Of a stretch of DNA of 42,374 nt, positions 30,359-34,915 are shown piece by piece; position 1 is the first letter of the stretch, and the number at the start of each line of letters is the position of its first letter. Under the pieces are notes generated by a model, which had not been told where the DNA came from, did no database searches, and saw only the letters and a list, made by a program, of their open reading frames with translations. A program made the position numbers and the translations under genes. The DNA comes from Thermostichus vulcanus str. 'Rupite' (GTDB lineage Bacteria > Cyanobacteriota > Cyanobacteriia > Thermostichales > Thermostichaceae), in assembly GCF_022848905.1 (NCBI RefSeq), contig NZ_JAFIRA010000036.1, positions 1 through 42,374 of the forward strand, read 5' to 3'.

Positions 30359-31018
30359 TCAGGGATTCGGGGTGGGCACCTCGTCCCCTTCAGAAAGGTA
30401 CCCTACCGCCCAGATCAACCGTTGTAGAGCACTCAGCAGCACCAAAATTGCCATCAAGCCGAATAAGGCCACCATGTGTTCAGGCAACAGAAAAAACAGC
30501 CCGTAGAACAAGATCGTTTCGCTACCCTCAATCAGAGCAGCAGGCATTCTTAAGCTGGTCAATTCATCGTCCGCTGAACGACGCAGACCGTCATGACTGG
30601 CCTTTTGTCGTTTTTCCAACAACCCTGCCAAATACATCCAGGAGCAAAGGTTGATATAGAAACTGGCCAACATCAAGGCCAAAAAGGCATAGCCCAGCAG
30701 GGATCCCTGGTGAAAAGCCAATCCCAGAGGCACAACTGCGTATACCACCACATCCAGCAGCATATCCAGGTAGCCCCCCAGATCGCTTTGCCGCCGTTGC
30801 AGTCGGGCCAACGTGCCATCCAACCCATCCATGAGGCGGTTTAGCAGCCACAGACCCAACCCCCACCCGTAGGCACCCAAGGCAGCCGCCGTGCCAGAAC
30901 CCAGGCCGACTGTAAACCCAGCCAGAGTAATCGCCAGTGGATGCACCTGTTGTAGAGGGGTCTCCAGCAAGGGAGCCAACAGCCGCTCCTTCCACTGCCT
31001 AAGCACCTTATCCAGCAA
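30359..31018 (-). CDS. CDP-alcohol phosphatidyltransferase family protein
   Basis: The 219-residue membrane protein has the family motif DGLDGTLARLQRRQSDLGGY followed by LDMLLD, giving the DG..AR........G...D...D pattern with all metal-binding aspartates. About six membrane helices are present. It would attach an alcohol such as glycerol phosphate or inositol to a CDP-linked lipid; the substrate cannot be told. The start is TTG 31016-31018, decided by AAGGAG six bases upstream and the lack of a nearby ATG. Confidence 0.83.
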   Translation of the reverse strand: MLDKVLRQWKERLLAPLLETPLQQVHPLAITLAGFTVGLGSGTAAALGAYGWGLGLWLLNRLMDGLDGTLARLQRRQSDLGGYLDMLLDVVVYAVVPLGLAFHQGSLLGYAFLALMLASFYINLCSWMYLAGLLEKRQKASHDGLRRSADDELTSLRMPAALIEGSETILFYGLFFLLPEHMVALFGLMAILVLLSALQRLIWAVGYLSEGDEVPTPNP

Positions 31019-31147
31019 TGAACACTCCTTATCTCTAGGCTTCTCTATGCTGAGCAGATCTACGTTTGAATATTCATTCTTGGATCCATTTTGGAAATCA
31101 TAATCCCAGATTGTGAGAATCCGATTAGAGTTGAAACATCCCAGTTA

Positions 31148-31194
31148 GGACTCCGTCCCGCTAACGCGAGAGGACTCCGTCCCGCTTGCGCGAC
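31148..31194 (+). repeat. Two adjacent double-hairpin repeats upstream of the Rad52-like gene
   Basis: Copy 1: GGAC-TCC-GTCC (31148-31158), then CGC-TAAC-GCG-AG. Copy 2: GGAC-TCC-GTCC (31172-31182), then CGC-TTGC-GCG-AC. The period is 24 bp, as in the folC array. Confidence 0.75.
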
Positions 31195-31394
31195 CGGTAC
31201 AAGAGCTTCACTCCCCAGATACCACCATGGACTTGAATGAGAGCTACAGCAAGCTGGTGGCCCCCTTCCCCTTGGAGGTCATGGAGATCAAGCCCGGGGC
31301 CACCACTCGGGATAAGGCTCGGGCTCTGGCTATGCCTTACAGTTTTGCAAGCAAAGCCCACGTCTTTTAAGCGTGGGATGTAGCGCCGTGGAGC

Positions 31395-31790
31395 TTAGCC
31401 GCCGTCATGGGCTTCAATGTAGCGTTGAATTATCTCTGACGAAACATTCCCCGCTGACCCACAGAAATAAGAACGAGTCCACAGAGAGGGAAGCCTCAAC
31501 AGCGACGGAAACTCCTTCCTGAGCTGATGGGATGTGGCCCCCTTAATGCGGTGCATGAGCTGATAGGGCGCTATCTGGGGCGGCGCATTCAGAAACAAGT
31601 GAACGTGGTCGGGTTCCACTGCCAAGCTGACCACCTCGCAATCCAACTCCCTGGCCTTGTCGTGAATCAACGTGGTCAACCGCTCTTTAATTGAGCCAGT
31701 CAACACCTTCTTTCGGCGCTTGGAGCACCAGACGAAGTGGTAGTTAATCAGCGATACAGAGGTTCTAGTTCGGCGGTAATCTTGCCCCAT
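31395..31790 (-). CDS. tnpA: Y1 (HUH) transposase TnpA
   Basis: The 131-residue product is full length for the family. It shows the HUH motif in EPDHVHLFL (about residue 62), the sequence SLWTRSYFCGSAGN, and the catalytic Tyr in IIQRYIEAH near the C-terminus. It cuts and joins single-stranded element ends at hairpins. It is divergent from tnpB. Confidence 0.93.
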   Translation of the reverse strand: MGQDYRRTRTSVSLINYHFVWCSKRRKKVLTGSIKERLTTLIHDKARELDCEVVSLAVEPDHVHLFLNAPPQIAPYQLMHRIKGATSHQLRKEFPSLLRLPSLWTRSYFCGSAGNVSSEIIQRYIEAHDGG

Positions 31791-31832
31791 TCCCGTGCTA
31801 TGGTTGTGTTGATAGCTTCATCCTATCAACAA

Positions 31833-32939
31833 ATGTACGTCTGCGAGTTCAAAGTCAAAGCCTGCGCCGATCAGCATCAAGCAATTGATGAGGCGATCCG
31901 CACCGCCCAATTCATCCGCAACAAGTGTTTGCGGCTCTGGATGGACGTGCGCGGCACGGGCAAGGCTGAGATGAGTGCCTATTGCGCCGTCTTGGCGGCG
32001 AAGTTCCCCTTCGTTAAGACTCTGAACTCAATGGCTCGCCAAGCTAGTGCTGAGCGGGCGTGGGCGGCAGTGAGCCGCTTCTACGACAACTGCAAGAAGG
32101 GCATTCGCCCTGTGGGGCATCCCAAATTCAAGAAGGATGCCCGGTCTGTGGAGTACAAGACGACAGGGTGGAAGCTGCTAGATCCTAAGCACATCCAGTT
32201 CACGGATGGGAAAGGGATTGGCCGACTCAAGCTCATTGGTACCTGGGATTTAGCTCGGGTGCCCAAGGAACTCATTAAACGGGTGAGGCTGATGCGTAGG
32301 GCCGATGGCTACTACTGTCAGTTTTTGCTCGGCATTGAGTATCGACCCAAGGTACCCAAGACGGGCGAGGCGATTGGACTGGATGTAGGGCTAGAAAGCT
32401 TCTACACCGACTCCAGTGGCCACAAGGAGCCTAACCCTTGTTTTCTGAGGAAGGGGGAGGAGCAATTAAAGCTGCTCCAGCGGCGGGTGTCGCGCAAGCA
32501 AAAGGGGTCATCTAATCGGTGCAAGGCAAGACAACGCCTAGCCAGACACCACCTCAAGATAAGTAGAAGACGAGAAGAGCATGCCAAACGACTGGCGCGT
32601 TCCGTTATCCTGTCTAACGACTGGGTGTTCTACGAAAACTTGCAGGTACGCAATCTCATTCGCAACCACTGCTTAGCGAAAAGCATCGCTGATGCTAGCT
32701 GGTATCAGTTTCGGAAGTGGATAGAGTATTTTGCATGGAAGTTTGGCAAGGTGGCCTGGCCCGTGAATCCAGCCTACACTTCTCAAGATTGCCATCACTG
32801 TGGGAATCGAGTTGTCAAGGCATTGAGTACTCGCACCCATCGGTGTAAGTGCGGCACCGTCATCGACCGCGATGAGAATGCTGCACTCAATATCTTGAGC
32901 CGAGGTATCGAACAGTACCGGCGGGCAGCCGGAAACTAA
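31833..32939 (+). CDS. tnpB: RNA-guided nuclease TnpB
   Basis: The product is about 368 residues from ATG 31833, where homology begins (MYVCEFKVKACADQHQAIDE). It has the helix-turn-helix-like N-terminus (FIRNKCLRLWMDV). The RuvC residues are Asp in IGLDVGLESF, Glu in FYENLQVRN and Asp in DRDENAALNI. The zinc ribbon is CHHCGN with CKCG. All catalytic residues are present. ATG 31800 is an alternative start. It would use a guide RNA from the right end of the element (32940-33063). Confidence 0.92.
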   Translation: MYVCEFKVKACADQHQAIDEAIRTAQFIRNKCLRLWMDVRGTGKAEMSAYCAVLAAKFPFVKTLNSMARQASAERAWAAVSRFYDNCKKGIRPVGHPKFKKDARSVEYKTTGWKLLDPKHIQFTDGKGIGRLKLIGTWDLARVPKELIKRVRLMRRADGYYCQFLLGIEYRPKVPKTGEAIGLDVGLESFYTDSSGHKEPNPCFLRKGEEQLKLLQRRVSRKQKGSSNRCKARQRLARHHLKISRRREEHAKRLARSVILSNDWVFYENLQVRNLIRNHCLAKSIADASWYQFRKWIEYFAWKFGKVAWPVNPAYTSQDCHHCGNRVVKALSTRTHRCKCGTVIDRDENAALNILSRGIEQYRRAAGN

Positions 32940-33063
32940 ACGCTTGGGGAGATTGGGCCTCTATTCTTTCTGGCTTCGGCCTGACTGGGTAAGCTCAGTC
33001 GTTGAACCAAGAATCCCACTGGCTTCAGACGTGGGAGTGTCAAGCGGATGTGCGGGTGTATCA
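32940..33063 (+). ncRNA. Predicted TnpB guide RNA (omega RNA), scaffold plus guide
   Basis: Known TnpB systems make a structured RNA from the right end of the element whose last ~20 nt are copied from the adjacent host DNA. Here the non-coding right end (32940-33043) carries a stem CCCAC/GTGGG, and the guide would be 33044-33063. The exact 5' end may overlap tnpB. No transcription evidence is available. Confidence 0.35.
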
Positions 33064-33469
33064 GCAGGCTTTGGATGATGCGGTGGGGCCGCAGGCGTGG
33101 TAAGTGGCCTATCGCCCCTGGGAAGACAAGGCGGTGATCTGTCAACTGACGATTTTGGGCATTTCCAAAGAAGATGTGGGGGAGCTGGCGGAGGAGGGAG
33201 ACAATGCTTATACCAGCGCCATTGCCTGTGCCTTCAAACGAGCCTGTTCTGCCTTTGGCTTGGGGCGTTACATCTATGGGTTGCCTACCGTTTGGGCTGA
33301 GTATGATGCGGAGCGCCGTTCTTTTAAGGATCCCCGTAAAGTGATGGAGCAGATTTACCGTCAGGCTGGGATCCCGGTCGAAAAGCCCTCTCCCACTGGC
33401 TCAGGACACGTATCCAAGGGCTGACAGATTAAAAAGATTGGAAAAACTATAGATTGGAGAGGTCACCGT

Positions 33470-34915
33470 TTGCAGGATTGGCAGCAGATCCAACAGGCTC
33501 TCAAGCAACACTGGGGTTACGAAGCGCTGCGCCCACCTCAGGATCAGGTGATTCGTACTTTGTTGGACAAGCGAGATGCTCTGGTGGTGTTGCCGACTGG
33601 GTTCGGTAAATCCCTCTGTTTTCAGGTAACAGCTCTGCTGCAAACGGGAGTGACGTTGGTGGTCTCCCCCTTGATTGCCCTGATGGAAGACCAGGTTCAG
33701 GAGTTGTGGCAACGCAAGCTACCGGCAGCCTGTCTACACAGTGAACTGGATCCGGCCTTGCGCAAACGGGTGTTAAAAGCTTTAGAAGACAACCGCCTGC
33801 GCCTTCTCTATTTGGGGCCAGAAACCCTGTTTAGCCCGCGGGTTTGGCAGCACTTGCAACAACCCCAGGTGCGGATCAACGGCCTGATTGTGGATGAAGC
33901 CCATACGCTGGTGCATTGGGGGGGATCCTTCCGGCCCGACTACCGCCGTTTGGGGCTGCTACGCCCTGCCCTAACCTGGAAAGGGGAAGCATTTCCCATT
34001 GCGGCCTTTACCGCTACCGCCGATCCCCAAACCCAAAGTCGCCTGCAGCAGGCGTTGGATCTGCGCGACCCAGCGCGGATTGAGGTGGATCCCATCCGCC
34101 CAAACCTATCCCTGAACATTTCCATCGTCTGGAGCGTGGCGGATCGTCGCCGACAACTGCTGCGATTCCTCCAAAAAAATTCAGGGTCCGGGCTGGTGTA
34201 TGTGCGAACGCGGCGGGATGGACAAGCGTTGACAGAGTGGCTGGAGAGTCAGAACTTCCAGACAGCCACTTACCATGGTGGGCTGGATTCGGGATCCCGT
34301 CGGCAGTTGGAGCGGGCTTGGCTGCAGGGGGAGTTGCGCTTTTTGGTCTGTACCAATGCTTTCGGTATGGGCATCAACAAACCGGATGTGCGCTGGGTGC
34401 TGCATTTTCAGCCTCCTCCGGATTTGACCGATTATGTACAGGAGGTGGGGCGGGGTGGGCGGGATGGTGGCTTTTGTCGGGCCTTGATGTTGGTTTCGGA
34501 ACCCACGGGATTTTGGGATCCCAGCGATCGACAACGCAACGCCTATTTCCATCAACAGCAGCAACGGATCGAGGCTCGGGCCAGGCTTCTGCTCAAAACC
34601 TTGCCTGACCAGGGATCCTACACCAACATTCCCACCGCAGAAGACCGAGTGGCTTTGGGGGTGCTACAGGAAATGGGCTGCTTACAGTGGCAGGATCCCT
34701 TTTGCTTCCAGATCCGGCAGCGGCGCTGGCAACCCTACTCAAGACCGGATCCTTGGGAGGGAATGGCAGCCCTGATCAACACACGCGGCTGTCGCTGGCA
34801 GGTGCTATTGCAGCATTTTGGCTATCAGAATGGGAATCAGACCTGTGGAACCTGTGATAACTGTTGCCGCTCCAGCTCCTCAGGTGCAGGCATCCGGCCA
34901 TTGCGCTGGGTATGA
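33470..34915 (+). CDS. recQ: RecQ-family ATP-dependent DNA helicase
   Basis: The 481-residue product has the Walker A motif LVVLPTGFGKSLCFQV, the DEAH box LIVDEAHTLVHWG, FTATAD (motif III) and the C-terminal helicase motifs FGMGINKPDVRWVLH and QEVGRGGRDG. A partial RecQ zinc region follows (WQVLLQHFGYQ, CGTCDNC). There is no HRDC domain, so it is a short RecQ. It unwinds 3'-5' in recombination repair. It starts at TTG 33470 with GGAGAGG seven bases upstream. It directly follows the broken Rad52-like gene, with which it may once have acted. Confidence 0.88.
   Translation: MQDWQQIQQALKQHWGYEALRPPQDQVIRTLLDKRDALVVLPTGFGKSLCFQVTALLQTGVTLVVSPLIALMEDQVQELWQRKLPAACLHSELDPALRKRVLKALEDNRLRLLYLGPETLFSPRVWQHLQQPQVRINGLIVDEAHTLVHWGGSFRPDYRRLGLLRPALTWKGEAFPIAAFTATADPQTQSRLQQALDLRDPARIEVDPIRPNLSLNISIVWSVADRRRQLLRFLQKNSGSGLVYVRTRRDGQALTEWLESQNFQTATYHGGLDSGSRRQLERAWLQGELRFLVCTNAFGMGINKPDVRWVLHFQPPPDLTDYVQEVGRGGRDGGFCRALMLVSEPTGFWDPSDRQRNAYFHQQQQRIEARARLLLKTLPDQGSYTNIPTAEDRVALGVLQEMGCLQWQDPFCFQIRQRRWQPYSRPDPWEGMAALINTRGCRWQVLLQHFGYQNGNQTCGTCDNCCRSSSSGAGIRPLRWV

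What the first reader, a model, noticed from the sequence alone, without database searches (positions are those of the whole stretch)
31227..33424. Rad52-like gene split by an IS605-type element whose exact excision restores the frame
Seen: the 5' part ends TAC at 31340 within TTAC; the 3' part resumes GCG at 33044 right after TCAA. Joined, codon 38 (Tyr) runs into ADVRVYQQ, as expected for Rad52-type annealing proteins. A second lesion, TAA at 33101-33103, lies in the 3' part. Knowledge: TTAC/TCAA are the known IS608-type cleavage sites. Inference: excision would be scarless, but the stop shows the gene had already decayed or decayed later.
Basis: partly seen in the sequence, partly recalled or inferred. 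Interest (0 to 1): 0.8.

Follow-up and report, generated by a model that had tools for sequence, protein, structure and literature searches.

The report
Cyanobacterial annealing gene split by IS608-like element
A jumping DNA element of a well-known kind has recently landed inside a phage-type DNA-annealing gene of a cyanobacterium, at exactly the site its chemistry predicts, and a relative still carries the unbroken gene; a clean but ordinary case of gene loss by an insertion sequence.

Summary
Window 31341-33043 is a 1703-bp IS200/IS605-family element of the IS605/IS608 type: a Y1 transposase TnpA (minus strand) and a TnpB with its RuvC triad kept (plus strand). Its ends have the complete IS608 layout: TTAC in the left flank, guide AAAG plus hairpin, guide GAAT plus hairpin, terminal TCAA. 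Related copies in the genus have the same ends with unrelated flanks. One of five congeneric genomes (G003) carries the uninterrupted gene, collinear with both flanks and joining exactly at Tyr38|Ala39. The in-frame TAA at 33101-33103 is CAG (Gln) there. The gene belongs to the Rad52-like/Erf-like ssDNA-annealing proteins. The 3' part still shows strong purifying selection against G003 (dN/dS about 0.07), so insertion and stop are both recent; their order cannot be told. Excision would restore the junction but give only 57 codons. TnpB, guided by the gene's own right flank, should cut the empty allele and keep the insertion in place; that is inferred from the known TnpB model. Ordinary: a new member of a known kind.

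The parts
31227..31340 (+). 5' part of the Rad52/Erf-like annealing gene, codons 1-38 (ends TAC, Tyr38)
   Evidence: 88% aa identity to residues 1-40 of the intact G003 protein
31337..31340 (+). TTAC target / left cleavage site in the left flank
   Evidence: IS608 CL = TTAC (PMC5934647)
31341..33043 (+). IS200/IS605-family element, IS605/IS608 organisation, 1703 bp
31353..31377 (+). left end: guide AAAG (31353-31356) followed by hairpin CCCACG/CGTGGG (31357-31377)
   Evidence: same layout as IS608 GL AAAG
31395..31790 (-). tnpA, Y1 HUH transposase, 131 aa, intact; HVH motif and C-terminal Tyr present
   Evidence: PF01797 4.4e-39; IS608 TnpA 2a6m 1.3e-23
31833..32939 (+). tnpB, RNA-guided nuclease, 368 aa from ATG 31833 (ORF open from GTG 31737), RuvC D/E/D residues kept
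   Evidence: ISDra2 TnpB 8bf8 1.4e-37
33011..33043 (+). right end: guide GAAT (33011-33014), hairpin CCCAC/GTGGG (33015-33035), cleavage site TCAA (33040-33043)
   Evidence: IS608 GR GAAT, CR TCAA
33044..33424 (+). 3' part of the annealing gene, from Ala39 to the stop
   Evidence: 91-92% aa identity to G003
33044..33059 (+). expected 16-nt guide segment of the TnpB right-end RNA, i.e. the gene's own right flank (inferred by position)
   Evidence: reRNA model of PMC8612924
33101..33103 (+). in-frame TAA, codon 58; CAG (Gln) in the intact relative
33470..34915 (+). downstream neighbour, RecQ-type helicase, conserved in all six genomes of the genus (context)
30359..31018 (-). upstream neighbour, CDP-alcohol phosphatidyltransferase, same place in G003 (context)

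Best explanation
An IS200/IS605-family element of the IS608 type inserted 3' of a TTAC (codons 37-38) in a Rad52/Erf-like single-strand annealing gene and inactivated it, recently relative to the split from the nearest sequenced relative. Shown by sequence: the element, its ends, the exact junction, the intact relative and the stop. Inferred: TnpA excises and inserts the top strand as a single-stranded circle by the 'peel and paste' route, with AAAG pairing to TTAC and GAAT to TCAA, leaving no scar. Also inferred: TnpB, guided by the first ~16 bases of the gene's right flank and licensed by TTAC, cuts any emptied sister allele so that repair copies the element back. The gene is a pseudogene now. 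The TAA at codon 58 arose either before the insertion or afterwards under relaxed selection, so excision alone would not give back a full-length protein.
For: The intact, gap-free, collinear homologue joins exactly at 31340|33044. Pfam and PDB matches identify TnpA and TnpB. TTAC-AAAG-hairpin and GAAT-hairpin-TCAA match IS608. Same-family ends at unrelated sites also abut TTAC (left) or end in TCAA (right). The 3' core has dN/dS 0.066 over 114 codons against 0.14 for recQ. With 6 nonsynonymous changes seen, neutral drift over more than about 15-20% of the window lineage since the split is unlikely. No other intact copy of the gene was found in the genome. The TnpB donor-joint cutting model is from PMC8612924.
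Against: The relative's target reads CTAC, not TTAC, so the exact empty target allele was not seen. No transcript or excision data exist here. The TnpB guide RNA was not tested: no Rfam family matches. IS608 itself prefers TTAC followed by C, whereas here the following base is G. The stop rests on one assembly.
Confidence: 0.93

Rival explanations
1. The gene was already dead through the TAA stop, and the element landed in a pseudogene with no selective consequence. (This differs from the best explanation only in the order of events.)
For: The stop lies upstream of most of the conserved core, so by itself it would have killed the gene.
Against: Nothing distinguishes it from the reverse order; both lesions fall in the same short recent interval. 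The change from the relative's CAG needs two substitutions, or one from a CAA ancestor.
Confidence: 0.35
2. The insertion is a reversible switch: scarless excision turns the annealing gene on in part of the population.
For: Element ends and both proteins look intact, and IS608-type excision seals the donor precisely.
Against: The TAA leaves only 57 codons after excision. TnpB is expected to cut the emptied allele. The interrupted arrangement was not found in any other genome searched.
Confidence: 0.04
3. The 3' part (GTG 33104 to 33424, 106 aa) is still translated as a separate functional fragment.
For: The frame is open and shows low dN/dS against the relative.
Against: The fragment lacks the first 58 residues of the protein, no convincing ribosome-binding site is seen before the GTG, and low dN/dS is explained by recency.
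Confidence: 0.05

Closest known systems
IS608 (ISHp608) of Helicobacter pylori, IS200/IS605 family
   Same: Y1 TnpA and TnpB genes, insertion 3' of TTAC, TCAA right end, guides AAAG and GAAT at the foot of subterminal hairpins, no target duplication
   Different: Host and sequence differ (TnpA matches at E 1.3e-23); the base after the target is G, not the preferred C
ISDra2 of Deinococcus radiodurans (TnpA/TnpB, reRNA)
   Same: TnpB homologue with conserved RuvC residues (8bf8, E 1.4e-37)
   Different: ISDra2 uses TTGAT as target and TAM; here TTAC
Rad52/Erf-like single-strand annealing proteins (Pfam PF04098, PHROG 1097)
   Same: Intact G003 homologue matches both; homologues annotated as Erf-like or recombination proteins in phages
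   Different: The window copy is broken twice; closest relatives outside the genus are Herpetosiphon proteins at 56% identity

Membership tests
IS200/IS605 family, IS608-like | Y1 HUH transposase TnpA | tested here: met
   PF01797 E 4.4e-39; 2a6m ISHp608 transposase E 1.3e-23
IS200/IS605 family, IS608-like | TnpB with RuvC triad and zinc ribbon | tested here: met
   Cas12f1-like_TNB and OrfB_IS605; D, E, D aligned with ISDra2 TnpB
IS200/IS605 family, IS608-like | Insertion 3' of TTAC, TCAA at right end, no target duplication | tested here: met
   Junction against G003 and related copies
IS200/IS605 family, IS608-like | Subterminal hairpins with guide AAAG (left) and GAAT (right) at the 5' foot | tested here: met
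   Exact layout; hairpins predicted (left z -2.3, right weaker, z -0.9)
IS200/IS605 family, IS608-like | Active transposition and scarless excision | not testable with these tools
   Needs excision PCR or in-vitro cleavage
TnpB RNA-guided nuclease system | Right-end guide RNA ending in flank sequence; cleavage of TAM-flanked donor joint | not testable with these tools
   No Rfam match; inferred from position and PMC8612924
Rad52/Erf-like annealing protein | Match to PF04098 or an annealing-protein profile | tested here: met
   PF04098 21.0 bits vs cut-off 20.3; phrog_1097 Erf-like E 1.7e-21, both with the intact G003 homologue; window 3' fragment alone 18.2 bits, below cut-off

The most novel reading that the evidence does not exclude
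The element actively enforces loss of the gene: TnpB, programmed by the gene's own right flank (TTAC + GCGGATGTGCGGGTGT), cuts every restored allele in a multi-copy chromosome, so that an insertion into a recombination gene behaves as an intracellular gene drive until the gene decays.
Probability: 0.3. Interest if true: 0.35.

Novelty: new member of a known kind. Interest (0 to 1): 0.2.

Why it matters
It is a clean natural example of IS608-type target choice in a cyanobacterium, with an uninterrupted relative for comparison, and of an accessory (probably acquired) annealing gene being lost. It could serve as a test locus for TnpB-enforced retention, but it changes no existing picture.

Tried and rejected
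The first scan of genome contigs with the 3' fragment alone found no relative; a family profile then found Herpetosiphon and Gloeobacterales homologues. The Pfam PF04098 search over the genus finds nothing, not even the intact G003 gene, so it is not evidence of absence; the protein query was used instead. The profile search of solved structures found only designed helical proteins with non-significant domain scores, rejected as chance. Rfam gave no match to a TnpB guide RNA. Paper searches for Thermostichus insertion sequences and for precise IS605 excision in cyanobacterial genes found none. A frame-restoring intron or intein reading was rejected because the element's ends and proteins are plainly IS605-type. 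Any excision that rejoins the flanks restores the frame by construction, so frame restoration alone was not counted as evidence; the match to the uninterrupted relative was.

Full report
Observation. The window has an ATG at 31227 and 38 codons to TAC at 31338-31340, inside TTAC. A 1703-bp insert follows, ending TCAA at 33040-33043; the frame resumes GCG at 33044 and ends at 33424, with an in-frame TAA at 33101-33103. The insert carries a divergent pair: tnpA at 31395-31790 on the minus strand and tnpB on the plus strand, open from GTG 31737 with a likely ATG at 31833, ending at 32939.

The insert. TnpA is a Y1 transposase (PF01797, E 4.4e-39) and matches the solved IS608 transposase (E 1.3e-23) and two closer relatives. 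TnpB matches ISDra2 TnpB (E 1.4e-37) with the D, E and D of the RuvC site aligned. At the left end the order is TTAC, 12 bases, AAAG, hairpin CCCACG/CGTGGG; at the right end GAAT, hairpin CCCAC/GTGGG, TCAA. This is the published IS608 layout: CL TTAC, GL AAAG, GR GAAT, CR TCAA (PMC5934647). Related ends elsewhere in the genus begin right after TTAC (G002 contigs 16 and 43) or end at TCAA (G000 contig 51, G002 contig 16, G004 contigs 83 and 12) with unrelated flanks, so the boundaries do not rest on the window alone. A deletion derivative of about 0.38 kb in G002 has both ends. In the window's own genome no second near-identical copy was found; the other DNA matches are partial and at most 89% identical, and eight further Y1-transposase matches are listed there.

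The gene. G003, a genome of the same genus, carries an uninterrupted 163-aa gene between the same neighbours, a CDP-alcohol phosphatidyltransferase gene and a recQ gene. The joined window flanks align to it at 86% DNA identity with no gap at the junction. The window's TAA corresponds to CAG in G003; other homologues have Ser or Ala there. The target reads CTAC in G003 and TTAC in the window, a synonymous change in Pro37. The intact protein matches Pfam Rad52_Rad22 just over its cut-off (21.0 vs 20.3 bits) and PHROG 1097, Erf-like ssDNA annealing protein (E 1.7e-21), with homologues annotated as such in phages.

Age of the lesions. Against G003, the 114-codon core of the 3' part has 22 synonymous and 6 nonsynonymous differences (dN/dS 0.066), the 5' part 0.049 and recQ 0.14. 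A simple Poisson calculation shows that neutral drift for more than roughly 15-20% of the window lineage since the split would give more amino-acid changes than seen, for background ratios of 0.03-0.07. This is rough (short gene, equal branches assumed), but it says the gene was under selection until recently and that both lesions are young. Their order is not resolved.

Mechanism. Insertion and scarless excision follow from the known IS608 chemistry; activity was not tested here. The TnpB right-end RNA would end in the gene's right flank, and TTAC would be its licensing motif, so an emptied sister allele should be cut and the element copied back (model of PMC8612924); this is inferred. Because of the TAA, excision would give a 57-codon product, so a reversible switch is unlikely.

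Distribution. The gene was found in two of six genomes of the genus and in few other members of the class (15 of 390 genomes at E <= 0.001, most of them weak). Its nearest relatives outside the genus are Herpetosiphon (Chloroflexota) proteins at 56% identity, closer than the Gloeobacterales ones at about 38%, so horizontal acquisition is plausible. Loss of such an accessory gene by an insertion sequence is ordinary.

Verdict.

Noticed in passing
L027:5176-5667 (G003) and L060-L063: The intact annealing protein is closer to Herpetosiphon/Chloroflexota proteins (56% and 48% identity) than to other cyanobacterial ones (about 38%), suggesting transfer between phyla.
   Followed up: partly
31147-31196: A short tandem pair AGGACTCCGTCCCGCT(AA/TG)CGCGA just upstream of the gene; G003 has one unit, and a similar unit occurs in G005 (L029:565-594), so it looks like a dispersed repeat of the genus.
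   Followed up: no
L037:1501-1881 (G002 contig 16, 61679-62059): A non-autonomous deletion derivative of the same element family, about 0.38 kb, keeping both ends, with TTAC in the left flank and TCAA at the right end.
   Followed up: partly
L071, L074 (G003:C1:421387-421746, C1:2141051-2141410) and G003:C2:176235-176594: Three Y1-transposase copies in G003 with the same score, each with one in-frame TAG; a stop shared by all copies may mean spread in trans after decay.
   Followed up: no
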